The notes under the pieces: generated by a model
Seen by the model: only the letters and a program-made list of their open reading frames with translations
What the model was told of the DNA's origin: nothing
Database searches by the model: none
Program-made: the position numbers and the translations under genes
NCBI GenBank assembly: GCA_017528425.1
Contig: JAFXOV010000031.1
Span: 1 to 64,000, forward strand
DNA: 64,000 nt
Origin: Elusimicrobiota bacterium
GTDB lineage: Bacteria > Elusimicrobiota > Endomicrobiia > Endomicrobiales > Endomicrobiaceae
Reading direction: 5' to 3'
In this document: positions 41,365-62,400 of the stretch, piece by piece
Layout: every line of letters begins with the position of its first letter
How positions within the stretch are numbered: the first letter of the stretch is position 1

Positions 41365-42102
41365 ATGAAGACGGCAGTTGTAATTCCTGCGAGATATGCA
41401 TCAAGCAGATTTCCGGGCAAACCTTTGTTTTTAATAAACAATAAACCTCTTATACTTCATGTTGTAAGTAAAGTGTCAAAATGTAAGGGCGTAGATTGTG
41501 TTGCGGTTGCTACCGACGATAAAAGAATTTTTGATACGGTAAAATCCGCAGGCTATAATGTTTTTATGACACCGGTAAATTTAAAAAGCGGGACAGACAG
41601 AGTTGCTTATGTCGCAAATAAATATTTGAAAAACTACAATGTTTTTATCAATGTTCAAGGTGACGAACCGTTGATAGATAAAAAACTCGTGGAAAAAATG
41701 GTTGAAGAATTTAAAAAGGATAAAAAACTTGAATATTTAACGGTAGCTTACAAAATGAAACCTACGGATGATATCGCAAATCCGAACACCGTAAAAGTAA
41801 TTTTCGATAAGAATCACTATGCACTGTATTTTTCAAGATATCCTATTCCTTTTTTAAGAGATGAGAAGAATAAAAGCAAAGCGGATTATTATAAACATAT
41901 AGGTGTTTACGGTTATACAAAGAAATTTGTTTGTGAGTTTACAAAATCAAAGCAGACAAAACTTGAAATTGTTGAAAGTTTGGAACAATTAAGAGCATTG
42001 GAACAGGGCAAAAGAATAAAAGTTATTATATCGAGTAAAGATCTTCAGGATGTAAATGTGCTTGAAGATGTCGCAAAAGTAAAAAAAGCATTAAAAAAAT
42101 AA
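41365..42102 (+). CDS. kdsB: 3-deoxy-manno-octulosonate cytidylyltransferase
   Basis: 245 residues from ATG 41365, placed by a GGAG nine bases upstream and by the family start MKTAVVIPARYASSRFPGKPL. An earlier in-frame ATG at 41284 would run through the hairpin array. Other marks are VATDDKRI, GTDRVAYVA, NVQGDEPLI, and YKHIGVYGYTKKF. It makes CMP-Kdo for LPS, using CTP, and the CTP synthase gene follows after 30 bases, a frequent kdsB-pyrG pairing. Confidence 0.97.
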   Translation: MKTAVVIPARYASSRFPGKPLFLINNKPLILHVVSKVSKCKGVDCVAVATDDKRIFDTVKSAGYNVFMTPVNLKSGTDRVAYVANKYLKNYNVFINVQGDEPLIDKKLVEKMVEEFKKDKKLEYLTVAYKMKPTDDIANPNTVKVIFDKNHYALYFSRYPIPFLRDEKNKSKADYYKHIGVYGYTKKFVCEFTKSKQTKLEIVESLEQLRALEQGKRIKVIISSKDLQDVNVLEDVAKVKKALKK

Positions 42103-42132: not shown

Positions 42133-43719
42133 ATGAAAACGAAGTATATTTTTGTTACCGGAGGAGTAATTTCTTCAGTCGGAAAAGGTATCACGGCGGC
42201 ATCAATTGCATGCTTGTTAAAAGCAAGAGGATTAAAAGTAAATATTTTAAAATGTGATCCTTATTTGAATATTAATCCCGGACTTTTGTCACCTATGCAA
42301 CACGGAGAAGTTTTTGTTACTATAGACGGTATGGAAGCGGATTTGGATTTAGGACACTATGAAAGATTTATAGATCAGGAAACAACAAAAGTAAATACGG
42401 TTACATCCGGAAGAATATACCAAAAAGTTTTAAACGACGAAATTGAGGGAAAATTTGCGGGAAAAACAGTTCAGGTTGTTCCTCATATAACAAACGAAAT
42501 AAAAGAAAGATTAAAAGCTGTTGCCGGTGACAGTGATGTTGTTATGGTTGAAATAGGCGGAACCGTGGGAGATATAGAAGGTTTACCTTTCTTGGAAGCA
42601 ATAAGACAATTCAGAAACGATATCGGAAGAGAAAATGTATTGTATGTACATGTAACATTAATTCCTTACATAAAGGCATCGGAAGAGCTTAAAACAAAAC
42701 CTACACAACACAGTGTTCAAAAATTGAGAGAAATAGGAATAGAACCGTCGATAATCCTTTGCAGAATGGATCAACATTTAACCGATGAAATAAGAGACAA
42801 AATATCGTTGTTCTGCAACGTTGAAAGAGATGCCGTAATTGAAGAAAGAGATGTTCAAACATCAATTTATGAAGTTCCGGTTCAATTACACGAGAACAAA
42901 ATAGATGATTTGATAGTAAAATATTTGAAACTTGATGCAAAACCGATTGATTTGAAACAATGGAACGAGATGATACATAACTGCAGATGTCCGGAACATC
43001 AGGTTACCGTTGCTATTGCAGGTAAATTTATAGAATTGAAAGATTCTTATAAGAGTGTTTTTGAAGCGTTAAAACACGGCGGAGCAATAAATGTTACCGA
43101 AGTTAAAATAAAATATGTGGATACTGATTCTCAGCATTTGGAACACGATTTGAAAGATGTAAATGCAATTATTTCTCCGGACGGAGATAGCGGCGGAACA
43201 TTGGAAGGGAAACTTAATGTAATAAAATATGCAAGAGAGAACAAAATTCCTTTCTTCGGTATATCTTTAGGTATGCAAAGCGTTATTGTCGAATATGCAA
43301 GAAATGTTTGCGGACTAAAAGATGCAAATTCTTTAAATATCGATAAAAATGCAAAAACCCCTGTTATAATACAAACAAATGCAAAAAATAAAGACGGTCA
43401 TTTTATGAGACTCGGTTCTTGGAAGTGCGATATAGCAAAAGATACCAAAGCTTATGAAATATATAAAAAAGATGTTATCAGCGAAAGACACAGACACAGT
43501 TATGAAGTAAATAAAGATTATGTTAAAGTATTGGAAGAAAAAGGACTTAAAGTATCAGGTTATTCAGACGATGAAAACAAATATGTTGAAATTGTTGAAA
43601 TAAAAGATCATCCTTGGTTTATTGCCGTTCAGTTTAATCCGGAATTCCAATCAAGACCAACAAGACCGCATCCGTTGTTTGCAAACTTCATAAAAGCGGC
43701 TCTTATTAACAAAAAATAA
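42133..43719 (+). CDS. pyrG: CTP synthase with a degenerate glutaminase domain
   Basis: 528 residues. The synthetase half (1 to about 270) is complete: [64 protein letters not shown] and [13 protein letters not shown]. The glutamine amidotransferase half keeps its fold signatures ([30 protein letters not shown]) but has lost catalysis: Ser378 replaces the nucleophile Cys in GISLGMQ, Asn502 replaces the His in QFNPEF, and the oxyanion loop PGGFG is PDGDSGG (from 349). Only the triad Glu504 remains. Predicted activity is ammonia-dependent CTP formation from UTP. The reading frame is intact, so this is substitution, not decay. It ends the LPS-core gene run before a terminator. Confidence 0.96.
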
Positions 43720-43850: not shown

Positions 43851-44324
43851 ATGAAAAGTATTTTAAAATGTGCTTTATCGTTTTTTATCCTTTTCTCGAC
43901 GATAGATTTATCTGTTATAAATTTGTTTGATAAATTTTATTCGGATATGGGAAATAAGACATCTATTTCTGAAATTATAGAAATAGAGTGTGATTTATTC
44001 TATCATGCGAAAAATGTAGTAAAAACAGTATGCAACAATATTGCAAAAGATGTAGAGATTTTGTTGGCGCCGACACAAAACAATAAAATGTTTTTTGATA
44101 TTGATAAGACGGATAGAAGAATATATACGGACAATTTTTTCAGTTGGTTTAAACTTGTATTGGCGGTGTCGGTATTAAAATCAATTTCCGTCGATACTAA
44201 CGGTAAACTGAAATTGTTTTTCTTTGGGTTTATATTTATTTTTATATTAAAATATTTGGGATTGCTGTTTACCTTCGGTAAAATAGCTGTCTATGAACAA
44301 TATAAAAAGGCATACATCATGTAA
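43851..44324 (+). CDS. Small membrane protein upstream of the giant gene, unknown function
   Basis: 157 residues from ATG 43851. An in-frame ATG at 43833 overlaps the -10 of the promoter and has no ribosome site, so the later ATG is chosen; neither has a good Shine-Dalgarno. The N-terminus (MKSILKCALSFFILFSTIDLSV) is a signal-anchor. The middle has MGNKTSISEIIEIECDLFYH and two Cys. The C-terminal half holds two hydrophobic helices (FFSWFKLVLAVSVLKSI and LFFFGFIFIFILKYLGLLFTF). No family recognised. Its stop lies within the loop of the hairpin at 44304-44343, and the giant gene begins 40 bases after it, so the two may be functionally and transcriptionally tied. Confidence 0.7.
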   Translation: MKSILKCALSFFILFSTIDLSVINLFDKFYSDMGNKTSISEIIEIECDLFYHAKNVVKTVCNNIAKDVEILLAPTQNNKMFFDIDKTDRRIYTDNFFSWFKLVLAVSVLKSISVDTNGKLKLFFFGFIFIFILKYLGLLFTFGKIAVYEQYKKAYIM

Positions 44325-44343
44325 AAATGATGTATGTCTTTTT
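44304..44343 (+). terminator. Terminator-like hairpin between the small gene and the giant gene
   Basis: Seventeen paired bases (core GGCATACATCAT with ATGATGTATGTC, one G:U), a six-base loop holding the small gene's stop, then TTTTTT. It ends only 21 bases before the giant gene start, leaving no room for a separate promoter after it. Transcription of the giant gene must read through it, begin inside the small gene, or be controlled here as an attenuator. Confidence 0.75.
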
Positions 44344-44364
44344 TATTTGTTACGGAGAAAAAAT

Positions 44365-44469
44365 ATGATGATAAAATTTTTTAAGGAAAGGTTTAATTCA
44401 ATAAAAATCTGTGCGGTTTTTACTGCCGTTTGTTTTATGGTATCGACATTGGGTGCAAATTTGTATGCT
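44365..44469 (+). other. Signal peptide of the giant protein
   Basis: Residues 1-35: a basic start (MMIKFFKERFNSIK), a hydrophobic core (ICAVFTAVCFMVSTLG) and ANLYA before a probable type I cleavage site. It predicts Sec export, which sits oddly with the ATP-dependent modules further on. Confidence 0.8.
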
Positions 44470-47400
44470 CTTCCTATGGCAGAAAACACAAACAAAAAAT
44501 ATGAAGATGTCTTTAATAAAACAGATTGTATAAGCAACGAATACGGGAAAATAACATCGAGTAAAGATAGTAACAGTAATATAACCGTAATAAATATACA
44601 AGATTTACATTGCCATCCTCAAACACAAAGAAATATATCAAAAATAATTGCTCAGATTGCCGATAAATATAATTTAAAGAAAGTCTATGTCGAAGGCGGA
44701 TACGGTGATATAGATGTAAGTTGGTTAAATTCAATAAAAGATGAAAATATAAGAAAGCAGGTAATAGAAAAATTATTGAATGAAGGAATGCTTACCGGAA
44801 GTGAATATTATAAATTAACAAGTAATAACGATAAAGTTGAGTTAAAAGGTATAGATGAAGAAAGTATCCATAAAGACAATGTAAAAAGGTTGTCCTGGAT
44901 AATATCCCAACAAAACAAATACAGAAAAATCACGGAAAGAGTGAATAAAGAAATAGAAATATTGGAAAACATACATATAAACGACAGAAACAAAAGATTC
45001 AGTAAAAGTATAGAGGAATATTCTTTAAATAAAATAGACAGCAAAAAATTTTACAAACAACTTATAAAGTATGTTAGAGATATAAATACAAATCCCGAAA
45101 AGTATAACAATATAACAGCAATAAGGTTGGAAGATTATCCTAATATCACTAAATTTATGACATTAAGAAAAGTGTCAAAGGATATAAATATAAAACAAGT
45201 AACTCAACAGTTACAAATAATAGTAAACGAATTTAAAAACAGATTGCCGTATGAAATATATACAAGATTTTTAAAAGAAACCGAGAATTTAAGTAACAGT
45301 CAGAAAGTTTTGGAATTAATAACATTATTGTGTGATAAAGAAAATATTAACTTGGAGAAATATAAAGCATTAAATGATTTTTTACAAACCAACTCCATAA
45401 CAAAAAAATTAAATCCTATAGAATTGGTTCAGGAAGAAAGACAATTAGTAACAGAAATAAGAAAAGCTCTTTCATACAATGACGAAGAGTATGAAATAAC
45501 ATTCCTGTCTGATTTCAATAAATATTTTCAAGATTATTTGGAATATAAATTGACGGATGCAAGTTGGAAATATTTTGAAAAACATTATTCGGAATTCAGA
45601 CAAACATACGGGAAATATGCAACCATAGACAGAATAAAAGAAATAGAAGATGATTTTGTCGAAATAAATAAATATTACGATATAAACGATCAAAGAAATA
45701 ATATCTTCGTAAAAAATTTGCTGAAAGGCGAAAAAATACATTTGACGTCAACCGATAAACTAAGACAAGAAGATGAGATGTTAAAAGCTTCGAAAGATGT
45801 AATAATTGCCGTAACCGGAGGTTTCCACAGCAGCGAATTGGAACAATTGTTGGCAAAAAACGACGTAAATACCATAGTAATAACTCCCAAGATATATGAA
45901 GATATAAAACAGGCAAACGATAAATATATCGAACTTATAGGCTTGCAGAGCAGAGTAAAAAGTCAGGCTTTATCATATACTATTTTATCGTCGGTAACTG
46001 ATGTTGATAAACAGAAAATACTGGTGTCTGTAGTAAAAGATATTTTTGGCGGAAACGAAGAAAAAATAAAAGAAGTTTTGGGAAAAGATGTAGATTTAAG
46101 TCTGTCATATGAAGAACAAAATATAAACGCAAAAGAAAAAAATGAAATAAGAAATATAATAGAAACCGCAATAGATCGGGTTTTAGCTGTCATTCCTCAA
46201 CAGGGTATGAAAGATGTTTTTGTTCCGAATATAGACGATATAATGTTGAATATGGCGGAACAATTGGTTAGACATGGCTTTTATTTTAGCGAAGGAATGA
46301 TATTTGACATAGAAAACTCAAATTTAAAAGGACAAAATTTAAGAGGAATACCTGCGGAAATTTATTCAAGAATGTTGCCGAGTTTACAGAAAGCTTTATT
46401 TAAAGTTTCCGTACAAGAAAATTTTGAGCCGAATGAAGAAAATCAAGGACTAAAACAATCCGATGATGCACTGAAAAAACAATTCTCGATTTTTGCTCCT
46501 TTATCCGACAGTAATAAAGTGTTTAATACATTGTCTAAAATACCTCATATTTGGGAAGAAATAGCGTTTAGAGTAATTCCCGTAAGTCTTGCTGTTCTTT
46601 CCATGTCTTTTCCTGCAATATCTTTTTTAAGTATTCCGATGGGCTTAATATTTTTCACGATATGTCAAAACCAATTTATAAAAGCACACAATATAAGTAC
46701 ATGGATAAAGGAAAATAATTTAGATTGGAAAACTTCGGATATTCTGCTGGCAACTTTATTTAATATTTTCCCTGATAAAGATTCAAAAGAGAAATTTAAT
46801 ACTGATGCAAAAAAAGCAGAAATTAGATCCCAAACAAGATCAAGGTTTTTGCCGACGATTTTATTGTCCGTTCCGTATTTATATTCCATGCTTTTCGCAC
46901 CGAGTATTGCTGTGGTCGGATTAGCTGCTGTTACAGGTGCTTTTGTTCATAAGTATTTGAATTTAATATTAAAAAATAAATTGAATATATTTGACGAGAT
47001 AGGTATAGTTACTATGTCGCCCGATGATGATTTTAAAATAGATTCAAATTATACCGTTTCGTTGAAAAACAGTGATGATGCACAAAAATTGTTTTTGGTA
47101 TTAAACGGCAGAAAACTCTCTAAAGAAGAAGCCGAAATTTTGACAGACATTATTTTAAGTAATGTTGAGCAATATGGATATTTTATAGGCCTTTTACAGC
47201 AAATAAGAAACAGGTTTATAGGAAATGCTGAATTGTTAGTTGAAACTCTTGCCGAGAGAATTGATATAACAAACACTAATCAACTTAATCTTTTTAAAGC
47301 AATCTCCGAAAATTTGATTTTGAAATGGAAAACTGTTTTGCCTGCACTTTTTAGAAGGTTGGATTTAAACAATGATGCAAATGTCTCATTGATAAAATAT

Positions 47401-50400
47401 TTTATATCCAAAAACCCGTACAATTCCGAGTTAAGTACCATAATAGTGGAAAAAGCCGATTTTAAGAACAAAAATCATTTGGTTATATTAAATGATTTAA
47501 AAAGTATTAATGACGATGTCTTGTCCGCATTGATGAATAAAGCAGATATTAAAAATATAGAACATGTAAACTTGATATTAAATTCATTATTGAAAGCAAG
47601 TTACTTGTTTTCTTTTCAAAAAGTTTTGTCCGATATAATGAAAGAAATTAATTTGTCCGATAAGCAAACATTAGAAGTCTTTTCTGCCTTTATGAGAAAC
47701 AACGGACATATTTTGGACGACAATAATATTAAATTACTCATACAAAAAATAAGTTTTGAAGCAGATGAACAGATTGAATTATTAGAGTCTGTTTTAAAGA
47801 AAAATACTGCTAATATTGACCTTGTTTTTGATATTTTGCTCACTAACAATATTAATCTCAATGATACAAGATACAGCAAAATATTTAAAATAATAATTGA
47901 TAAAATGTTATCTAAATACAGTTCTTATAAAGATGCAAGGAAATATTTTGACAAAAATATTTTCTTGCTTCCGGCAAATTCCGTTCAGGGAAAATATGCA
48001 TTCAGCTCATTAATAGATTTATTACACAACGAGTTAATTGCTCATCAAAACAGACACTTAAAAATAGTTAACGGTCGTATGGTTGTTAGAGTAAAAGAAG
48101 ATGGAACAGATCCTGTTCTTGATAGTATTTTCAGATTTGCACAGGATATTGAAACACGAAAAGAAATGTTTGATTCCGAGTTGAAAGCAAGATTTGATGG
48201 CTTTATGAGAGATTTGAATTTCTTAAAAGAAATGGAAAGCAGAACCTCTAAAAGATCATATACAAGAAATCGTAAAGTTACAGATTCCATAGCAGACAAT
48301 TTAACAATAGAAGAATTTTGTAAAGAAAAAGGTTTTTCTTTAATGAAACAAACACCGAATGTGTTTTTTGACAGCAGAAGATATTCTTTTACCGGAGTAT
48401 TAAATTTTATTTCCAAAAAACTTTTTGGCTTTAGACCGAGTCATCATAATCCTACATATATTATGACAACAAATACCGTAGATGCCGAAAAATTAGACGG
48501 AGTTATTTCTCAGTTTGATGCATACATGAATTTGTTGGATGAAAACTTGTATATATTGAATAAAATTGACGGCTTAACCGCTTTTGATTCTCAATTTGAT
48601 GATGTGGTAAATCATATAATTTTAATGATAGATTACTTGGAACAAATTAGTTATCATGGAATTTCTTCATTTAGAATGTCTTTGAAAAATATATTGGAAG
48701 AAATTAAAAATAATAATACTACAATTGCGGAACAAAAAAAGATTATAGAATCTCAATCAGGTAATTTAATTAAAAATATACTGACAATAAATACTCTTGT
48801 TAACAGAATCCATCAACAGGCAAATATGTCATTTGTAATGACAGTAATGAGTTCTTTGAGTGATTATGAAAATGCCGGTTACAATACGTTGGTTTCAAAA
48901 AACGATAACTTAATATCCGTATATAATTTGTCATCGAATGATATATCGCCGCAAGTGGAAAAGTTTTTATCCGATTTGGCGGAAAACCCCGATTTTTCAA
49001 CGGATGTAAAAACTCCGATTTTTGTAAAAGATAATATTGTGTTGTGGGTGGCAAGTTTAGGTGTACATTCCGTAAGAATCCTTATAGATTTTAATGAAGA
49101 AACGAAATCGATTCTTGTAGATTTTCACGAAGGAGCAATAGGCGATGGAAACACTACCAGAATAAAAATGCTTGATGACATTTTAACAAGTATGGGCTTT
49201 AAAGTTGAAAAATCTATTCAGGAGTTTGAATCAAGACGATTACCGGACGGAATTGTTGCCAAATTAAATAAAGATGTCGGATTAACAAACAATATGGACT
49301 TTAGTAATGCGGCAAAACAGGCTTTAATTCTTTTTAACAATTCTGCTTCTTTGAATAATCTTATAAGTAACAAATTTCAAATGAAACATAATATTGATGT
49401 TGCAAAACTTGCGATAATGGATATATATTCAAGATACTATGCATTGAGTTATATAAGAAGCAATTTCGTTAGAACAAGACTTAATACCAGAAGGAATCTT
49501 AATAAAATTTTAAAATCTTTAGAGTTACCTTTAATTCCGAGAAAAGAGCAGGGTTTTTGGACGTTTTTGAAAATAGGAAGAATAACAGTAGGCTTTATAA
49601 AAACATACGGTCAAAATACGATAGATAAATATGTAAATAAACCTATAGAACAAGCATTTGCCACGGGATATTTGAAGATAAACGATAAAGGTGAATTGGA
49701 AAGAAATAAGGATTATAATCCTATAGCGAGTATGAGTGATAAAATGAAAGATATTCTTGAAAGTGAAGTCGGACAAGCGGAAGAGATTGATATGTTGGAT
49801 CAGGGTGCACTGGTATCGCAAATGCCCGAGGGGGAAATGAATTTTAAAACAGTCGGTCAAATAGGCGGATATGTTTTAAAAACGGGATATATAAAGTTGA
49901 ACAATGGAAGATTGGATGAAAACACTAAAGGGGAATTTTTAGCGGTAACAACTTTAACCGATAAGAACGGAATAATAAGGTATACTTCAAGTGAAATTGC
50001 AGGATATCCCGAAAATATGAACACAGAATCCGGAAGAATGAAATTGAATTCACAACAATTGGAACAAATACTTAAAACAGAAAGATATGACATAAGTTCT
50101 GCAGAAAAGTTAACAAACTCAGAACTTTTAAATTACAGGTCAAAAATACAAGAAACAATAATCAAAGGTGATGCTCCGGTTGCTTACGGAACAATGATTT
50201 CGTCACCGAAAGAACAAAAAAATACTGTATTTGCAAGATTAGGCGAAAATACTAGAGAAACAAGTTTATATATTGATAAATATGCAAGTCCCGAAAATGT
50301 GACGGAAGCATCTCAATACGATGTGTCATTATTTGCCGGTGGTTCGTATTCAAGCCATGCCGGAATAGTTTTAAGAGAATACGGAAAAACAGCCATGATA

Positions 50401-53400
50401 GTAAACGATTCTCAAATGGTTGATAAAAAGATGAGAATAAAGTTTTATCAACCTAAAGGAGCTGTCGTTCATACCGGAAACTTGGAAACTTTAGAGACGG
50501 AAGAACATGAAATAGAATTAGAACCCAACGATATCGTATTAATAGATATACGCAATAATAAAATGATATTGTTTGAAAGTAAAATGTTTAAGAAGAGAAA
50601 AGTCGGGAATATTTTATTTGAATTACAGAGATATATAGATAAACAAAATGTTGAGAAAGTAAAAGATTTTATTAATAAATATAAAAACAGTACCATAGCA
50701 GACAAGATTATAGAATACATATATTATCAATCTGCGGATAATCCGTGGCTTGAGCCTTTGTTGGATGTTGATACCGAAGCATACAGAACACAGCCTTCCG
50801 TAATAACACCCAGAACCATTGTAAAAAAAGTTTTACAAATAACGGACTTTGTTAAACATACAAGCAGAAATGCCGTATACAAATTCGGAGAAAAACAATC
50901 TCTCGATGCTTCAAAAGTCGGAACAAAATCGGCAAATCAATCAAAATTATATTTAGCTTTAGAACAATTGAAAAAAGAAACGGGAATAAAAAATGTTGCT
51001 GTTCCCGAAGGCTTGGTAATCGGTTATGACATTTTAGAAAAGTTGTTAGGTGAAAGATATTCTGAATTATATGCCGAATTGGAAGCGGTTGTCACAAACG
51101 ATTTCTATAACGAAGAGGAAAGAAATGTAAATATTCAAGATATAACGGCGGAAATAAAAATTTTAATACAAAATTTATCCGAAGAAGATATTATAAATTA
51201 TATAGGAACAGAGAATTTAGCGTTGTTTAAAAATAAACTTGCAATAGTAAGATCTTCCGGTGTGGGGGAAGATTCTCAAGAATATTCTGCAGCGGGAATT
51301 GCCGAAAGTTTCGGTTCCGTACAATATGATAATATTTCCAAAGCCGTAAAAGATACTTTGTTATCTTTCTTCTCTTCAAGAGCCATGGATTATATGGTTA
51401 AATCTTCAAATATTATAAAGCCGGCAATACTTATAGAGGAATGGTTGGAGGCTGATAAGGCCGGAATAATGATGAGCGAAGATACAAACGGTATGAGAAT
51501 AATACAAGCCGTAAACGGACAATGTGACGATGTTGTTTCCGGAAGGAAAACTCCATATACTTTTACGATAGATATAAAAAGCGGGACAAAAATTGACGGG
51601 AATTATACAAATGCAAAAACATTAACGAACAAACAACTTGAACAACTTACAAGAATAATGGAATGGTTGGAACAAGCAGAAGGAACTCCGGTGGATATAG
51701 AGTTTTTAATAAATAACGATGTTATTTATATCGTTCAGGTAAGACCTATAACCACATTAAAAAAACAGAGTTTAAAAGTATTGCCGAGAAGTTTGTTTAC
51801 AAGCGTTGAATCTGCTTATGAAGCTTTAAATTTAAAACAAAAAAACAGATTATCCAAAGATATAGAAACAATAAAACAAAATTTTAAACAATATAAGTAT
51901 AATGAATCCGAAATTGAAGGTTTGTTAAGGGATTTTGTTAAAGCGGAAAAGAAATTTTTGGATGCAGATAATAAAAATTATAATGTTGATTTAACTTCTC
52001 TTATAAAAAGCAGAGAAGATTTGGTCAGAATAACAACCTTAATAAAAGAATTATTGAGATTGAAAATAACTAAATTGGAAACAGAAAACGAAATGTTGGG
52101 ATTAAAAATATTTTTGAATCCCTCTTTCAATCGTATTATAAACAGAGAATTAGAAGATTTCTTCGATAAAGGAATATCATTTGTTCAAAAGTATTATATA
52201 GCATTGTCGATATCAAGGTTTTTAGGCGGTATTGTTGATATAAGTAAATCGGATTATGATGCTGATCAATTTAATGATATCGTTAAAGTTGCTACGGGAA
52301 TGTATATAGCAGCTTTGGAAGATCAAAAGGATAGAGTTGTGGCCGATAAAAATACAAGGTTTATTTCTCTTGCTGCGGTCTCAAGTTATGATCAACCTTT
52401 TGAAGATTCCGGACTTAAAAAATTATTGGAAGTGATGGGTATACCTTACGATTCGGATAAGGTTTCACTTATTAATGCGGATTTTGTTCCCGCAACAGAT
52501 GCAAAGAGTGAATTTTTAAGACAAATAGCCGCACTACAATCCGAAGAATCTGTTTTCATTTCTTTTGACGGACACGGATTTCCGGATTCCCTTGAAGTAG
52601 GATTTAATGCCGATATATCGAGTGAAGAATTTGCAAAAGCTTTAATTCAAGCATATAACAACGGAATGGACTTAAGTAAAATAACAATTAATTTAAGTTC
52701 ATGTTTTTCGTGGTATTTTGCAGACAACATTTATGATGCTTTAAATAAAGAATTCGACAGGTTGGAACAAAAAGGTAATGTGGTTAGCAGACAATTCCCT
52801 GTAATTTGGGCTTCTGCGGGACATGAAACAGTATATGGTTATTCTACATACTATAGGGATAACGATAAGTTAACTCCGATGAGTAACGAGTGGAACGGCT
52901 TGTTGACTTCGATATCACAATCCAACCCTGAAAATATAACCATCAAAAATCTTTTACAGGCAATGACTGTTGTGGGATATTCTAATCCCACATTGTTTGT
53001 ACACAGTGATTTTGTTCAAAAGGTTATTGAAAGCGGAACGGAACAAATACTCGAAATAGACAGCAGAAATAAAACATTTGAACAATCTTTAACGATAGGA
53101 GAAAGATTTAAACAACTTTTTAAAGCAAAAAAATTACATAATAATCATATTAACTTTTTTGAATTATCAATCTTTGCTCCGTTAAAAGATGAAAACAAAC
53201 TTTTTAATATATTGGATAAGACAGCACATATATGGGAAGAAATATTTTTTAGAACACTTCCTATAGCTTTAACCCTTTTACCTGTAACATCGTTCATATC
53301 TGTTCCGTTGACTTTGATTTTGTTTTCACTTTTACAAATACAGTTTGTAAGAGCACATAATATAACTTTATGGATAAAACACAATCAACTCGATTGGTCA

Positions 53401-56400
53401 ACAGGTGAAATTTTAAAAGCGGTATTGTTTAATGTTTTTCCTTCGGAAGAATCTAAACATTTGTTCAATTTCGATCAAAAAATGTCTCTTGAAGAACAAA
53501 CTAAGGGAAGAATTTTATCTGCGATAGGATTATCTGTTCCGTATTTAGCTTCGTTATGGCTTAATGCAAATATTCCTGTTATAATTTTAGCTTCTGTTAT
53601 AGGTATTGTCGTTCATAAGGTTTTAAATTATTTTTCAAAAGACAAAAAAGAGTCGAAAGAATACGAAGATTTCTTTGCAAAATTTTTGGATGATACCGAT
53701 ACTCCTTTACCGTCTTTGCAACAATTTTTAGCAGACAAAGAATTCATTGATTTGAGAGATGAACAACAAAGACAAGAATTAGTTGAAATTTTGGACAGAC
53801 TTGAATTATCCGAAGAAGAAACTTCGGAACTGGCAAAAAAAATAGATTTAAATGATATAAATCAATATACATATTTATTGAAGACTTTTTCGGAACAGAA
53901 AGGTTCTTTAGCAAATAACAGAATGCAGATAATTACCAATTTAGTTCAAAATGCCGATATCAACAATAAAACTCACTTTGAATTTATTCGTAAACTTTTG
54001 TCGGAAAATCAATATTATCGTGTTGATTTAGATACATTATACATACTATTGGAGAAATTAGATTTTAGCAATATTGATCATGTTATGTTGTTAACCGATT
54101 TCTTAAAGTCACAAACATATGACAATAGTTTACAAAATATTGCTTTTAACAGTGCTGTTGCGGAAAAACTTGATGTTAATGATCTTAACCAATTAAAGAT
54201 GTTGGAGCTGTTTTCCGATATAAATGACAGTGCTTTATCTTATTTGGTGTCAAATTTTGATTTTACCGTAAAGAAGAACCTGCAACCTTTCTTTACAAAA
54301 ATTGCGAAATACAATGTTTTACATAAAGGGAAAATACTGGATTTAATACTTGCCAAGTTGAATTTGAAAAATCCTTACGAGTTTAAAATGTTGTTTGGCC
54401 TTGTGAAAAAGGAAGAATCTCTTAATCCTTTTGTTGTAGAGAAAATTTTCAAAGCATTGGATTTTACCGATAGAGACCATTTGGAATTGGTGAAAAATAT
54501 AGTAAATAAAGAAAATGTGGAAGTGTCCGTCCTTGATTTGTTTGCGCAGTATTTTAATATGGGAAATACTAATCATGTGAATATATTAAGAGAATTGTGT
54601 AAAAATATATTTGAAAAAAATCAAAGAGACTCGCATATTGTTTTATACAGAAAAGTAAAAGAAAAATTTGATGAGTTGAATATTGCCGATATGAGCGATA
54701 AAGATAAATATATCTTTCAATTCTTTGCAAACGAGTTGATGATAAGCATGCAGGAATTATTGACGGATATACAGAACGATTATATCGAAGCTAAAGATGA
54801 TAAAATGATAATAGCTTTGATCGGACCTCAACAATTTGATGCAATAATCTATATGATAATTATTTTGACGAGCTTTGAAAGTATATTGTCAAAAGAAACA
54901 CTTGACAGATTTACAGGTTTAAAAGAACAAATAGCTTATTTTGAAAGAATGAGAGCGGAAGATGTAACAATAGAAGAATTTGCCGAAAAATACGGATTTA
55001 AAGTTTTGCAGGAAACACCGAATGTATATTTGAGTAGTGACAGATATCCGTTTACGAAAGTATTGAGTTTATTACCAACCGGAATTTTAAAACACAGAGT
55101 AAAAAAACTTGCACCGACATATTTTATAGAAAAAGAGGAATTGGAAAAACAAAGTTTAAAAAACATATTGAACAAATTTGATTCTTATATGAAACTTCTC
55201 GATGAAAATATGAATGTGTTATATAAATTTATGGGCTTAACCGCTTTTGATTCCCAGTTTGATGATGTTATAAAACACATAAATTTAATGATAGATTATT
55301 TAGCTGCTTTTAATACTTCGGATGCAAATTATTTTAGAAAAGTATTAAGAGATATTTTGAATGAAATAAAAGCCGGTAAAACGACAGTTGCCGAACAGAA
55401 AGCTTTCTCAACGGGCAGAGGTAAAACCGTTAGTGATATTACAACGATACATCGGCTTATTAACCGTATTCATCAACAGGCAAATATTGATTTTGTTATG
55501 GCTATAAGACACAGCGCTCGTTCATCTGCGAATAAAGTTCAAAATGTGTTTGTCACAAAGGGTGACAGAACAATAAAAGCTTATAACCTGTCGGAAAACA
55601 AAATACATCCGAATATTGAAAGATTGTTATCTTTATTGGCGGAAAACCCCGATTTCTTGATCAGAAGAGATTCTCAAATATTTATTAAAGACAATATATT
55701 TTTATGGAACGGATTGTTAGGTGATCATTCGGCAAGAGTTTTAATTGATTTTAACAGAGAAAATGAAAATATATTTATAGATTTTACGGAAGCTGACAAC
55801 AATTCTGCAAAAAGTCAATCAAGAATTTCAACTTTAGAAAGAATGTTAAACAATTTTGGGTTTATCGCAAAATCATATAACAACAAAGCTAATTTGACTG
55901 CAACCGTAAGTAAAGACTCCGGTATAACAAACGATACGGATATTTGCGAAATGGCACAAAAAGCTATGGCTCTTTTAAGCAAAGCTACTTCTTTATACGG
56001 GAAAAATACCCCTATAGAGATAATGGAACCTGCAGTTAATGATATCAATTTCTTCAATAATATTTTGGACTATTTACAATTGCCTTTAATTCCAAATGAA
56101 GAAGCAAGTTTAAGAGTTAAAAAGATATTTTTGCTTAAAAGAAAAAAATATACACTCAGTCAACAAACAATAGATAAATATGTAAATAAACCGATAGAAC
56201 AAGCATTTGCCACAGGATATTTGAAAATAAACGATAGAGGTGAATTGGAAAGAAATAAGGCATATAATCCGATATTAACGATAAAAAATAAATTAAAAGA
56301 TATGCTCGATACAGATTTGGGACAAACGCAAGAAACGGATATGTTAAATCAAGGAGCAATAATATCTCAAATACCCGAACAAGAGATGAATTTTACCAGT

Positions 56401-59400
56401 GTCGGTCAAATAGGCGGATATGTTATAAAGACCGGATATATGAAGTTAAGAGACGGAAGACTTAATAAAAACAGAGGAGAATTTTTAGCGGTAACTACAT
56501 TGACCGATAAGAACGGAATAATAAGATACAGTTCAAGCGAACTTGTCGGATTTGCGGATAATATGAATAATGAAACCAGCAGAGTAAATTTAAATGCCCG
56601 ACAATTAAAATTAATATTGGAACAGGAAAACTATCCGATAAATCTTGCGGAAAAATTTACAAACGGAGAACTTTTAACATACAGAAACAGATTAAAGGAA
56701 AATATAGTAAGTACAACAACACCGACAGCATACGGAACAATGATATCAACATCCGAAGGCTTAAGAAGTGTTTTGGGAATTGTAAACGGTGAATCTGACA
56801 GTAAAGGTTTATATGTTGATAAATATGCAAGTCCGGATAATGTTACGGAAGCAGCTCAATATGATGCGTCATTATTTACGGGCGGTTCATATTCAAGTCA
56901 TGCAGGAATCATCTTGAGAGAATACGGAAAAACAGCCATGATAGTAAATGATTCTCAAATGGTTGGCGGTGCGTTTAGAATAAAGGTTTATCAACCTAAA
57001 GGAAATGTAGATAATGACGGAATATTTGAAACACAAGAATTGCAGGAAAGTGAAATAGAGTTAGGCCCCAATGATATAGTGTTAATAGACAGTAAAGACA
57101 ATAAGATGATGTTGTTCGAACAAAAAGTATTTAAGAAGGGTAAAACAGGAAATATTTTGTTTGAATTACAGGAATATATAGATGGTCAAGATGCGGATAA
57201 AGTAAAAGAATTTATTAATAAATACAAAGATAGTACCATAGTAGACAAAATTATAGAGTATATATACTATCAGTCTGCAGATAACGTATGGCTTAATGAT
57301 ATATTGTCCGATTACGATAAAAAAGGTATAAGTGCTGTTGATTCTGCCGGTAAAGCAGAAAGAATTATCAATAAAATTCAATTAAACTTCAATTGGTTTT
57401 TACCTCATTCCGATAGTGCCAATGTATACAGGTTCGGAGAAAAAGAATCTCTTGATGCTTCAAAAGTCGGAACAAAATCCGCAAACCAATCCAAATTATA
57501 TTTAGCAGTAGAACAATTAAAAAAAGAAACCGGTATAGATGATGTAAGAGTTCCAAACGGTTTTGCGATAGATTATACAATCTTGGAAGATTTATTGGGG
57601 CAGGAATATGTAAATCTGTATTCTCAGTTTAGCTCTATTGTAAGAAAGAAAAACAAAACCGAACAGGATTTACAAAACCTTGATGAAATAAAAGCCCGAA
57701 TAGTTACACTTATAAACGGTATCAGTAATAACAAAATAAAAGATTATATCGGTAAAAGAAATTTAAAAACTCTAAAAGATAAAGTATCCATAGTAAGATC
57801 ATCCGGAGTGGGAGAAGACGGAAAATCGTATTCCGCTGCCGGTATAGCCGAAAGTTACGGAGAAGTTGAAGCCGATAATATTCCTCGTGCTATAAGAGAT
57901 GTTTTATCGTCTTTCTTCTCGGATAGAGCAACCGAATATATGGCAAAATCCGGACATATTATAAAACCTGCCGTTCTTATAGAAGAATGGGTTGATTCCG
58001 ATAAAGCAGGAATTATAATGAGCGAAAATTCCGAAGGAAAAGGAATTATTCAGGTTGTAAACGGAATCGGAGAAGATATCGTTTCGGGGAGAAAGACTCC
58101 GTATACTTTTGTAACAGATATTGAAACCGGAGAAAAAATCGACGGTAATTATACCGGTGAAGAATCTTTATCTTCAGCTATGGTTTCAAAACTAACCAAA
58201 GTAACAAAATGGTTGGAACAAGTAGAAGGTGTACCGGTAGATATAGAATTTTTAATAAAAGGCAATATTATTTATATTGTTCAAGTAAGACCTATAACGA
58301 CACTTGATGATTATACCGAAGAAACAGAAGTTGAAACCGAACAACAAGAGGAACAGGAAGAACAGCCCGGACCGGCAGATGAAATTGCCGATGATGCAGC
58401 TTTTGATGTTTCCGATGAAGATTTTTTCCTTGGAGATTTTACTCCGTTTAGAACCGGTAAAACAGCGGATGCAAAAAAATCAAAATCCGCAGCCAAAAAG
58501 ATAAAAGGGAAAAAAGGTAAGAAGAAAAGAAATATAAAATCCGCCAAAACAATAACTGGGGTTCATACCGGTGATCATTTAATTAATGACGATATTCGTC
58601 AACCGGTAGGACGTTCACAGAGAGATGTTATAGAAAGTAACAAAAAATTGGCACACTCGAAAGATCCTTCAGACAGTTCTTTAAATTTGAATACAGATCA
58701 AATAAAAACTGTACTTATGAGTTTTGGCTTATCAAAAGAAGAAGTGGAAAATATTGATTTCAGTGAAGGTTTGCCTGATGATGTTGTTTCATTATTAAAA
58801 AATACAAATTCGCAGGTTACGGGAACAACTATAGACCCAACGAAGAAATTAATGGATAATTTAAGAGAACATCCGATATTGTTCTCCTTGGCTATAGAAA
58901 CTTTTCTGAGAGTTTATGAAAAGGCTCTCGGCGGTTCCAATGCAACATTCGGAGATCTTTTGTCATTTATAGAACAGAGATATTCAAAAAGACTTTATGA
59001 AGCAACGTGTACGGATTTAAGAGGCTTTTTTGGAGAATACTATGTTGCCAACACCTTGATTGCAGGTATTATCCCCGATAAAAGAGCCGGCCCTATAATA
59101 ATAAGACCTATGTTACCTACCGACGGAAGCATAATGGGATATGATGTTTATAGTCCTGTAAACGGTGATAAATATCAAGTCAAAACGGGCGGAAGCGAAA
59201 TTGTTCATAAACATTTCGGTAAATATTGGTTTAATCTGTTGGATGTTGTAAAAGGAATTTGTGCTATTCCGGTAATAACCACAAAAAATGTGAAAGAAAA
59301 CAGTTTCAGAAACGATGACAGAGTTCAAGCTATGGATGTTACTACGGAAACAGTAACAAAATTTGCTCACGAATTTGTAGCTGCTTTACACGGAATTGCT

Positions 59401-62400
59401 TTTAAGACGAAATATTCTTCGGTAAGAGATTTAAAACTTACCGATTTAATAGATAATTTTAAAGGTTTTGATACGGAAAAGAAGATGTCCGTAGACGAAC
59501 TTATGAACTTGTTAAACAAAAATTATACGGGTGCCGTAAAAAAAGAAAAGAAGACTATGAGAGTTATTCCCGTAAATGAAACAATAGAAGTTGCTCCCAT
59601 AAGGTTAAAAACAGACTTTATTATAAATCAAGATATAGTTGTTAACGTAAACGCCGAACAATCACATGTCCTTTATATTGACGGTGAAAGTATTTTTGTT
59701 AATGAAGAAGGAAAAGAAGAAATAACGGAAGAAAATTGTTCTTTATACGGTATACAAAAAGTAGAATATGATGATGACGGATATATTTCATATATAACAT
59801 TTAATGAAGGTGTTACAATAAGTACTTTAAATTTTGACAAAAAACCGAAAGGTTCGGCTGCAAATAACGTTGAATTCTCCGAACAGGAAATAAAAGAAAT
59901 GAATTCCGATACGGGAACCGACGGAGTGATTAAAATTTATTTGGATGACGATGTAGATACAATTTGTCATTTAATTAAGGAAGCGGCAAAAAGTAAAAAA
60001 TTGATAGAATTCCATTTCTTTAGAGAAAGTTTTAAAACATCAGATTTAACCCAGAGTCAACTTTTGGATGTATATAAAAATATAGCAACGTTAATTTCCA
60101 ACAGATTCCAAATGTCCGATATTTTTAAGAGTTCCACTGATTATTCTAGATATACGGATTACGGCTTGGACTTTTTCTTAACCGAAATATTGAAAAATTC
60201 GTTGCTTCAAGGAAATTTGGGAAAGGTGGAAGAACCTATAGCAATGTATATTGATTTGGATGGAAAAGAAGAAGTTAAAGGTTTTTCTATATATAACAAA
60301 GCAAAAGAGAATAAAGAAGCCAAACTTGATAAAGGAAGAGAAACTTTGGCAATATCGGCACATTTGATGCTTAACGGTGACAGTAAGAGTACGGAAATAA
60401 TGACTCTCAACCCTGTAAGAGAGTATGATTTTGATGAAGAATATGAAATAGGTAACAATGAATACAGAAAAGCTACGGTATCTCTGAGAGATGAAATAGA
60501 TATGCAATTATATCATTTGGAACGAGATTATAAAAAATCCGAAAAGAATGTTTCGATTACGGATGTCGCATTACAAACGGATTCTACTGTTGCGGAATTG
60601 TACAGATTGGGTATTGAAAAATATAAAAAAGAATATTTGGAAGAAACAGGAAAAACAGAAGATGAATTAACTTCCGAAGAGTTGATTGCCATAGACCAAA
60701 AAGCAGAAAACTACAGATTTACTTTTGAAGGTGTATTAAAGGGTGTAAAGATTGAAAAATATTCCTTCTTCTCGGAAAAATTCTTGCCGTCTCACAGCAA
60801 ATTGACACCGTTAATGAAAACCGGTGTTGTGATAACAAAATTATTGGCTGTAAGTATAGGCGTTATGGTAACGGGACTCTCTTTTACCCTATTGTCAATG
60901 CTTGTTTATTCATTAATAACCAAATCCGTTGTTATTGTACCTTTAGTCCTTTCTGCTATATCAGCATTTTTCGGAACGATGGCTGCTGTTTATTCGGGTG
61001 AGTTATTTCATCTCTTGTGGAATGTTGTTGCTGTTATAACCAATAATGAAAAATATCTTCTTCAAACAGATATGAGTATAGCCGATGATTCCCAAAAAGG
61101 AAAAGGTTTCAATCATCCCTTATCTAAAATCTTAAGACCTATAAATTTAAGAAAGGAAATACGAGACAGTGAAATACCGTTAACATTTGTGGAACAGGCA
61201 AAACTTAACGGTGCGGAATTTATTTCAATTTACGATCTTGTTAAATATCTCGGAAAATTAAAAAGAAAAGATTTTAGAAATAATGAAGGTATTGAAAAGT
61301 ATAGATCAAGAACAAGCGGATATACGTTCTTTATGCACAAAGATTATTATGAAAGAGAAAACAAATATGTTGAAGACAGTTTCGGCTTTGCATTGGGATT
61401 GAGTTATGTTCCTGTTTTTGACGGATCAAAAAGAAAAGTAAATTTGGTCCGCGGTATTTGTGAAAGAAATAATTTGGTTTCCTGGGAAAGAGGTTACGAA
61501 TATTTTTACGGGAAAGAATATTCTGCAAAGACGACCGAAGAGTATATGGATAAAGTAAGAGATTTGACTTTGGAGTATAATAAGAAAATAGTATTCTTCT
61601 TACCGAAAAACTTATTTTCACATGATTTTTCGTTTAAAACAAGAGAAGAACTTGAATATATACAGCAACATCCCGAACTTTGGGACAAAATTGTATTAGT
61701 TTTCGGAACATACGATTGCTTGAATATACAAAATCAAGAGACTTTTAATCGGTATTTCAATGATAACGGTTCTCTTGAAGATGAAATGAGATTCTTTTCT
61801 ACAATGAAAAGATTGCTTTCAAATCCTAACCGTTTTATGATGGTAAAAGATAATTTAATTACAAAATTGGAAAGTAAAGGACTTGTAAAGTTTTTCAGAA
61901 ATACATTCTCATTGTCTTTAGACGGAATGGTTAAAACAGCGGAAGTTTTAACACGTTTGGAATATTCTAAGAAACAGGATCGTACCGAAAACACTGATGC
62001 CGTATCGCGGTTAAGAACGGATATTGAAGAAAATAATCGAAGACAAGTATGCTTTATATGTACGGCAAATATAAACAGAAGTGCTGTTTCTCATTTGTTG
62101 TTTGAAGACAGATTGGCGAAATTAGGTGTAGATAATATTTCGGTAGTTTCTGCAGGATTGTTACCTTTATCCGAAAAGAACACCGATGCCTCTCTTGCTT
62201 TAGGACAGGATTATGAAAAAATCCTTGAAGATTTTGATGTTGAACCTGAACTTATAGAAAGATTCCGTTCGGAAGAATTTTCTAAAAAACATGCCGGTTC
62301 CGATTATTTTATAGTTGTAAGTCAAAAGCATAAAAATGTTTTAATGGAACAATATAATGTCGATCCCGATAAAATTATTTTATATTCGGATCTTGATCCT

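What the first reader, a model, noticed from the sequence alone, without database searches (positions are those of the whole stretch)
43133..43719. CTP synthase whose glutaminase triad is destroyed by substitution
Ser378 stands for Cys, Asn502 for His, and the oxyanion loop is PDGDSGG instead of PGGFG, while the synthetase half and the length are normal. The cell would then need free ammonia to make CTP, which suits an ammonia-rich niche such as a gut or rumen, or a symbiont fed nitrogen by its host.
Basis: partly seen in the sequence, partly recalled or inferred. Interest (0 to 1): 0.75.

Follow-up and report, generated by a model that had tools for sequence, protein, structure and literature searches.

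The report
CTP synthase stripped of its glutaminase
A rumen bacterium carries two CTP-making enzymes: a normal one gained from a relative, and its own old copy, which has lost the part that draws nitrogen from glutamine but is otherwise strictly preserved, so it probably runs on free ammonia.

Summary
The 528-aa PyrG at 42133-43719 has Ser378 for Cys, Asn502 for His and a PDGDSGG oxyanion loop; Glu504 is kept. It is no sequencing error: 7 of 7 copies from Ruminimicrobiellum and a sister genus share it.

Trees and gene order give a history. The window copy (PyrG2) is the native pyrG of the Kdo operon (hldE-kdsB-pyrG-kdsA). The intact copy (PyrG1) nests inside gut Elusimicrobiaceae and was probably acquired by transfer. 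In five genomes checked, PyrG2 is cleanly absent between kdsB and kdsA. In two lineages it survives without glutaminase; one of these still has the Cys.

The losses fall almost only on glutamine and GTP residues (12 of 60 near-invariant glutaminase columns, 4 of 87 synthase columns). dN/dS is 0.007 for the synthase and 0.046 for the glutaminase domain. Best reading: an ammonia-only, GTP-independent CTP synthase beside the CTP-using kdsB, comparable to animal CPS1. Activity is inferred, not shown.

The parts
42133..43719 (+). pyrG2: CTP synthase homologue with broken glutaminase, 528 aa
   Evidence: PF06418 400.9 bits, PF00117 111.2 bits; TIGR00337 722.7 bits
42133..42933 (+). synthase (amidoligase) domain, residues 1-267; ATP, UTP, CTP, Mg and ammonia-gate residues kept
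   Evidence: 83 of 87 near-invariant columns kept; dN/dS 0.007
42442..42465 (+). L4 loop (E. coli 104-111), lost R104, R105, D107, L109
   Evidence: role of L4 in trans on GTP from PMC9138612
42991..43716 (+). class I glutaminase (GAT) domain, residues about 287-528, fold retained
   Evidence: PF00117 hit; AlphaFold2 mean pLDDT 87.6; VIA-align Z 47.2 to E. coli CTP synthase 8fva over 503 residues
43177..43197 (+). oxyanion loop and start of lid L11: PDGDSGG instead of PGGFGxR
   Evidence: lowest-confidence spot 352-354 of the model
43264..43266 (+). Ser378 codon (E. coli C379)
43636..43638 (+). Asn502 codon (E. coli H515)
43642..43644 (+). Glu504 codon (E. coli E517), third triad member kept
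41365..42102 (+). kdsB, CMP-Kdo synthetase (consumes CTP), directly upstream of pyrG2
   Evidence: TIGR00466 216.7 bits, NF003952 297.2 bits
40194..41180 (+). hldE domain I (rfaE1), heptose-7-phosphate kinase, same gene run
   Evidence: TIGR02198 395 bits
39215..40174 (+). hldD/rfaD, ADP-heptose epimerase, same gene run
   Evidence: TIGR02197 404 bits

Best explanation
PyrG2 is the vertically inherited CTP synthase of Endomicrobiales, encoded in the Kdo/heptose operon next to kdsB. After an intact CTP synthase (PyrG1) was acquired from gut Elusimicrobiaceae, PyrG2 became free to drop glutamine hydrolysis. It lost first the oxyanion loop, the His and the GTP-activation residues, and later, in the rumen lineage, Cys (to Ser) and the glutamine-binding Glu403. 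It still binds ATP and UTP, phosphorylates UTP, and aminates it with free ammonia. By analogy with E. coli CTP synthase, ammonia would enter at the vestibule at the base of the former GTP cleft and pass the kept gate (His57, Val60). The glutaminase domain stays as a structural shell. Since GTP can no longer plug the entry or activate the site, the enzyme should be GTP-independent. Its probable role is extra CTP made from free ammonia, co-expressed with the CTP-consuming KdsB, while PyrG1 supplies CTP from glutamine. Shown here: residue losses, second copy, phylogeny, gene order, selection pattern. Inferred: catalytic activity, ammonia use, GTP independence, homo-oligomers, coupling to KdsB, and that the gain of PyrG1 came before the loss of glutaminase.
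For: Two copies in one genome and in 5 of 11 genus genomes, 4 of the 4 that are at least 97% complete. Residue map: 4 of 87 synthase and 12 of 60 glutaminase near-invariant columns changed; all ATP/UTP/CTP/Mg/gate positions listed are kept apart from L16V in the phosphate loop. Selection: PyrG2 synthase dN/dS 0.007 and GAT 0.046, against 0.018 and 0.025 in PyrG1; between genera G000-G013, GAT versus synthase N:S counts differ in PyrG2 (46:70 vs 18:102, p 2e-5) but not in PyrG1 (14:78 vs 18:93, p 1). Phylogeny: PyrG2 is one clade (9 rows, 100) inside Endomicrobiales; PyrG1 nests within Elusimicrobiaceae (98/92, 96/96). Gene order hldE-kdsB-pyrG-kdsA is shared with order-level relatives, with clean absence of pyrG in five PyrG2-less genomes. 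The domain still folds in the model. Published: E. coli or L. lactis CTP synthase variants at G352, R356, L4 and R429 lose part or all of glutamine use but keep ammonia-dependent activity (PMC9138612, Table 1). Animal CPS1 replaced the same Cys by Ser and uses ammonia (PMC4655335).
Against: No activity measured. PyrG2 is dispensable in the lineage: absent at kdsB in G010 (same genus) with no remnant found, and in sister genera. No Amt found in G013 or G086. The anaerobic-digester genera that the paper names as nearest relatives (PMC11257099) probably correspond to g7/g11 and lost PyrG2, though digesters should be rich in ammonia. Four near-invariant synthase positions changed (L16V in the phosphate loop, D48N, T51L, R104I), which could affect catalysis.
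Confidence: 0.7

Rival explanations
1. PyrG2 is a regulatory or structural partner: it forms mixed tetramers or filaments with PyrG1 and modulates it, and its own catalysis is unimportant.
For: In the complete genomes it occurs with PyrG1; the GAT fold and most of the protein are kept; CTP synthases form filaments (PMC9138612, outline and figure legends).
Against: The synthase domain is under stronger purifying selection than that of PyrG1, which a mere regulator would not need. The L4 loop, which reaches the GTP site of the neighbouring protomer (PMC9138612), is destroyed in PyrG2 but R104 is kept in 59 of 59 PyrG1 copies, so mixed tetramers would harm PyrG1.
Confidence: 0.13
2. PyrG2 is a decaying, redundant copy on its way to loss, made dispensable by PyrG1.
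For: A clean absence of the native copy is seen in several sister genera and in G010; the GAT domain is relaxed relative to the synthase.
Against: dN/dS 0.007 over the synthase at dS of about 0.6; the open frame is intact in all 9 copies; the changes are confined and shared between genera.
Confidence: 0.07
3. PyrG2 has a new substrate or nitrogen donor (another amine, ammonia from a separate glutaminase in trans, or an acceptor other than UTP).
For: The donor side is rebuilt and not just broken: PDGDSGG is invariant in 7 rumen-lineage copies.
Against: The UTP and CTP residues checked are all kept; no free glutaminase subunit was seen beside it in the window or in the related operons.
Confidence: 0.06
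4. One reading: the organism depends on free ammonia for all its CTP because its only CTP synthase lacks glutaminase.
For: True in principle for a genome whose only copy is of this type; G001 and G086 show only PyrG2, but are 88% and 96% complete.
Against: The window's own genome has an intact pyrG on C24, and so do G002, G003, G006, G008, G013 and G085.
Confidence: 0.03

Closest known systems
Glutamine-dependent CTP synthase PyrG (E. coli PyrG, TIGR00337, PF06418 + PF00117)
   Same: Length, both domains, order of domains, fold (Z 47.2, rmsd 1.8 over 503 residues to 8fva), ATP/UTP/CTP residues.
   Different: No Cys, no His, no oxyanion loop, no Glu403, GTP-activation residues lost; it should not hydrolyse glutamine, although TIGR00337 'glutamine hydrolyzing CTP synthase' still scores it above cut-off.
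Ammonia-dependent carbamoyl phosphate synthetase I (CPS1) of land vertebrates
   Same: Class I amidotransferase domain kept as an inactive shell, catalytic Cys replaced by Ser (human Ser294), ammonia taken from solution (PMC4655335, passages; PMC7657897, passages).
   Different: Another enzyme and pathway; CPS1 is allosterically switched on by N-acetylglutamate; here the change is in a bacterial CTP synthase kept beside an intact one.
E. coli / L. lactis CTP synthase point mutants (G352P, R429A, L109A, D107A; L. lactis R359P, T431V)
   Same: Near-normal ammonia-dependent CTP formation with weakened or absent glutamine use (PMC9138612, Table 1).
   Different: Laboratory single mutants; PyrG2 combines such losses naturally.
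Ammonia-using NAD synthetases (NadE)
   Same: A synthetase family with both glutamine- and ammonia-using members (titles and abstract openings only of PMC3376133 and PMC7196632).
   Different: Unrelated, nitrilase-like glutaminase domain; not a broken class I domain.

Membership tests
CTP synthase (PyrG) | Amidoligase (synthase) domain with ATP, UTP and Mg residues | tested here: met
   PF06418 400.9 bits; K18, K40, D72, E140, K187, K189, K223 kept in all 9 PyrG2 copies (roles of single residues recalled)
CTP synthase (PyrG) | Ammonia gate and tunnel residues (His57, Val60, Pro54) | tested here: met
   identical in all 9 PyrG2 copies; the role of these very residues is recalled, the existence of gate and tunnel is in PMC9138612
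CTP synthase (PyrG) | CTP formation from UTP | not testable with these tools
   needs an assay
Glutamine-hydrolysing CTP synthase | Cys-His-Glu catalytic triad | tested here: not met
   C379S and H515N, E517 kept
Glutamine-hydrolysing CTP synthase | Oxyanion loop PGGFG and lid L11 with R356 and G357 | tested here: not met
   PDGDSGGT, 7 of 7 rumen-lineage copies
Glutamine-hydrolysing CTP synthase | GTP-activation residues (L4 R104/R105/D107/L109, T438, R470) | tested here: not met
   all six changed; R440 and R468 are kept; role of these regions from PMC9138612
Ammonia-only amidotransferase of the CPS1 kind (works like) | Inactive glutaminase domain kept in frame with a preserved synthetase part | tested here: met
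   by sequence and model only:
Ammonia-only amidotransferase of the CPS1 kind (works like) | Activity with free ammonia and none with glutamine | not testable with these tools
   needs an assay

The most novel reading that the evidence does not exclude
A natural CTP synthase uncoupled from both glutamine and GTP: an ammonia-only enzyme that arose when a transferred intact copy freed the native one. It is kept in the Kdo operon as a dedicated source of CTP for KdsB. The same loss recurs independently: G018 in the PyrG1 clade has C to G, H to Q and a broken loop in the only copy found, and a Tepidanaerobacteraceae MAG (L035) has C to G in the only copy found.
Probability: 0.45. Interest if true: 0.72.

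Novelty: new variant of a known kind. Interest (0 to 1): 0.6.

Why it matters
CTP synthase is regarded as a glutamine-dependent, GTP-activated enzyme in cells; ammonia use is mostly treated as a test-tube property. A lineage that has dismantled the glutamine and GTP machinery, while holding the synthase under extreme constraint, is a natural separation-of-function experiment. It would show which residues serve only glutamine and GTP, whether free ammonia can feed CTP synthesis in vivo, and how the glutaminase domain supports the fold when idle. It is a bacterial counterpart to the evolution of CPS1, with an intermediate (Cys kept, His and loop lost) still alive. It also shows that automatic annotation ('glutamine hydrolyzing') is misleading for such copies.

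Tried and rejected
Rejected: sequencing error (7 of 7 rumen-lineage copies agree). Rejected: sole CTP synthase. Rejected: genome-wide switch to ammonia. Of 7 PF00117 places in the genome, 6 carry the nucleophile motif; 5 of those 6 keep Cys and HPE (four other amidotransferases and PyrG1), PyrG2 does not, and the weak seventh (L288, 22.9 bits) has no motif. Rejected as weak: correlation with Amt (49 of 76 family genomes have it; G013 and G086 with PyrG2 do not).

Searches that led nowhere: two nucleophile patterns over 340 Elusimicrobiota genomes found Cys-less PyrG only in the 7 genomes already known; of the other hits, those with a locus were not PyrG, and five further places without a locus of their own were not looked at (G267:C287, G085:C31, G008:C83:95040, G001:C247, G028:C7; none coincides with a PF06418 place; G267 was not in those two calls). 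The patterns cannot see contexts such as G018's (Ala in place of Gly before the nucleophile), so they give a lower bound. Paper searches for natural CTP synthases without glutaminase listed none; that is only open-licence PMC text. A search for the kdsB-pyrG-kdsA arrangement gave no useful paper. The rumen ammonia search was read only as a listing and not used. In the VIA-align list the top rows are all CTP synthases, the lower ones other class I amidotransferases and hydrolases.

Rows dropped or wrong: G024 (partial PyrG) was left out of trees and conservation counts. G297 was a wrong reading frame (branch length 10) and was removed, with the same nesting of PyrG1. The 98 'intact' rows include one with H515N (L091) and two with PYGFG/PYGYG loops (L078, L090); 11 rows (9 PyrG2, G018, L035) were set apart. 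dN/dS is Nei-Gojobori counting over non-independent pairs, not a likelihood model; dS near or above 1 for G013 pairs is close to saturation. Counts were rounded. Empty-site search: one weak tblastn piece in L262 (E 0.17), not at kdsB.

Full report
1. What is there. The ORF 42133-43719 (+) encodes 528 aa with CTP_synth_N and GATase class I domains. Aligned to E. coli PyrG it has Ser378 for C379, Asn502 for H515, PDGDSGG for PGGFGxR, and keeps Glu504 for E517.

2. The organism. Taxonomy places Ruminimicrobiellum in Elusimicrobiota, Endomicrobiia, Endomicrobiales, Endomicrobiaceae. PMC11257099 (passages only) names Ruminimicrobium and Ruminimicrobiellum as rumen genera, perhaps ciliate-associated, with digester genera as their nearest relatives. 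It does not mention CTP, pyrG, cytidine or pyrimidine in its main text. The genus names of other G handles are my inference.

3. A second, intact pyrG. The genome (2.08 Mb, 64 contigs, completeness 100, contamination 4.69) has two PF06418 places: the window's and C24:175576-176364. The second, PyrG1, has PGGFG, GICLGM and FHPEF. It is not a contaminant on present evidence: PyrG1 is 97-99% identical in G002, G003, G006 and G008 of the same genus. Of 11 genus genomes, PyrG2 was found in 6, PyrG1 in 7, both in 5, neither in 3. All four genomes that are at least 97% complete (G000, G003, G006, G008) have both. In the family, 63 of 76 genomes gave a hit and 9 carry a PyrG2-type copy.

4. Where the two copies come from. 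In a tree of 108 PyrG rows, the 9 PyrG2 rows form one clade (SH-aLRT 100) inside a clade with single intact copies of other Endomicrobiales families (98), while PyrG1 rows of Endomicrobiaceae sit far away. With 18 further Elusimicrobiota added, PyrG1 nests inside Elusimicrobiaceae (f15): next to genus g42 (bootstrap/SH-aLRT 98/92), then within further f15 genera (96/96, 100/98). One of the 18 rows (G297) was a wrong reading frame; without it the nesting stays (92, 96, 98 by SH-aLRT). The direct reading is transfer of pyrG1 from gut Elusimicrobiaceae into an ancestor of Endomicrobiaceae. That f15 is Elusimicrobiaceae is inferred: G174, a single contig of 1,643,562 bases, fits my recollection of Elusimicrobium minutum.

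5. Gene order agrees. In the other families of the order, 5 of 7 rows have hldE-kdsB-pyrG (G025, G027, G028, G029, G031), and so does the class row G034; G026 and G030 do not. In G027, G028 and G031 pyrG is followed by a kdsA-like gene, and then kdsC; the G027 genes were named by NCBIfam. PyrG2 follows kdsB in 9 of 9 copies, including G001, where the contig ends soon after, and G013, where a cytidine deaminase lies upstream (for the window). In G085 and G086 it still lies between kdsB and kdsA. In G016, G020, G022, G019 and G017 kdsB is followed directly by the kdsA-like gene (named by NCBIfam in G016 and G022, by similar sequence in the rest), so pyrG is cleanly missing. In G010 (same genus as the window) and G012, kdsB is present without pyrG next to it. 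No PyrG remnant was found at these loci. No PyrG1 row listed lies beside kdsB.

6. The order of losses. G085 and G086 (genus g13) have a PyrG2 that lost the loop (APDGAVE) and the His (Asn) but keeps Cys. Shared with the rumen copies are G351D, H515N, T51L, D48N, D107K and L109A; C379S, E403N and Y298F are only in the rumen copies. So loop, His and GTP-side residues went first, and Cys and Glu403 later.

7. What was lost and what was kept. Of 148 columns at least 96% conserved in 98 reference rows, the window copy changes 4 of 87 in the synthase, 0 of 1 in the linker and 12 of 60 in the glutaminase domain. The synthase changes are L16V, D48N, T51L and R104I; T51 and the L4 loop belong to the GTP cleft or its rim (PMC9138612, section 3). 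The glutaminase changes are Y298F, G351D, F353D, G354S, R356G, G357T, C379S, E403N, T438F, R470S, L497Y and H515N. Several of these positions or their loops are named in PMC9138612 as GTP, lid or triad residues; that E403 binds glutamine is recalled. ATP, UTP, CTP, Mg and gate positions checked are kept apart from L16V (their roles partly recalled).

8. Selection. Pairwise Nei-Gojobori means: PyrG2 (6 genomes, 15 pairs) synthase 0.007 and glutaminase 0.046; PyrG1 (5 genomes, 10 pairs) 0.018 and 0.025. Between the genera (G000-G013) nonsynonymous:synonymous counts in PyrG2 are 46:70 (glutaminase) and 18:102 (synthase), p 2e-5; in PyrG1 14:78 and 18:93, p 1; glutaminase of PyrG2 versus PyrG1 p 1e-4. 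In the g13 pair G085-G086 both domains give about 0.047. So the synthase half is under very strong constraint and the glutaminase half is relaxed but far from neutral.

9. Structure. AlphaFold2 on 43 sequences gives mean pLDDT 87.6 and pTM 0.89; the weakest spots are residues 47-51, 93-95 and 352-354. Against PDB chains the best match is E. coli CTP synthase 8fva (Z 47.2, rmsd 1.8, 503 residues). The idle domain is predicted to keep its fold.

10. Mechanism. PMC9138612 (abstract, section 2 part 1, sections 3 and 6, tables, passages) reports that CTP synthase uses exogenous ammonia; that variants such as E. coli G352P, R429A and L109A or L. lactis R359P keep near-normal ammonia-dependent activity while glutamine use falls or vanishes; [quoted passage not shown] and that GTP can inhibit ammonia use by blocking it. 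PyrG2 has lost the glutamine site and most of the GTP-activation residues, which fits an ammonia-only, GTP-independent enzyme. The L4 loop acts on the neighbouring protomer's GTP site; its loss in PyrG2 argues against mixed tetramers with PyrG1. Human CPS1 offers the precedent: an inactive amidotransferase-like domain, Cys replaced by Ser294, ammonia from solution (PMC4655335, passages); a fish CPS III shows a parallel shift with the triad kept (PMC7657897, passages).

11. Limits and contrary points. No activity has been measured. The niche explanation is unproven: PyrG2 is missing in G010 and in several genera, and Amt is missing in G013 and G086. The other class I amidotransferases of the genome keep Cys and HPE (4 of 4 with a motif, plus PyrG1), so there is no general move to ammonia. 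Independent losses exist: G018 (C to G, H to Q, loop broken, PyrG1 clade, only copy found, 78% complete) and L035/G092 (C to G, only copy found), with 16 and 7 of 60 glutaminase and 2 and 0 of 87 synthase columns changed. These suggest recurrence but are single MAGs.

12. Verdict. Real, well supported as a conserved, glutaminase-less native CTP synthase kept beside a transferred intact one; ammonia use likely, dependence of the cell on it not. New variant of a known kind. Five paper searches listed no report of a natural CTP synthase of this type.

Noticed in passing
window 44293-64000: A giant open frame follows pyrG2 and a 163-aa ORF; it ends at about C43:64139 (about 6616 aa) and has a low-molecular-weight phosphatase-like Pfam match late in the frame.
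   Followed up: partly
genomes G082, G083, G084 (genus g10, 99% complete): No CTP synthase match at all in three searches, although CTP synthase is normally essential; no ammonium transporter either. G019 of the same genus has both.
   Followed up: partly
L127 (G018:C123) 175-1725: PyrG1-type CTP synthase that independently lost Cys (Gly), His (Gln) and oxyanion loop; only copy found in a 78% complete genome.
   Followed up: partly
L035 1869-3470: Tepidanaerobacteraceae MAG whose only CTP synthase found has Gly for the catalytic Cys while His and PGGFG are kept.
   Followed up: partly
L091 6001-7581: Syntrophorhabdaceae CTP synthase with Asn for the triad His but Cys kept, like the G085/G086 intermediate.
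   Followed up: no
L078, L085, L090: Actinomycetota MAG CTP synthases with PYGFG or PYGYG oxyanion loops and intact Cys and His.
   Followed up: no
L001 665-1312 (-): An ORF that looks like chloramphenicol acetyltransferase (by eye) lies beside the intact pyrG1.
   Followed up: no
window 42133-43719: NCBIfam TIGR00337 'glutamine hydrolyzing CTP synthase' scores PyrG2 at 722.7 bits (cut-off 462.75), so automatic annotation assigns a function that its residues do not support.
   Followed up: yes
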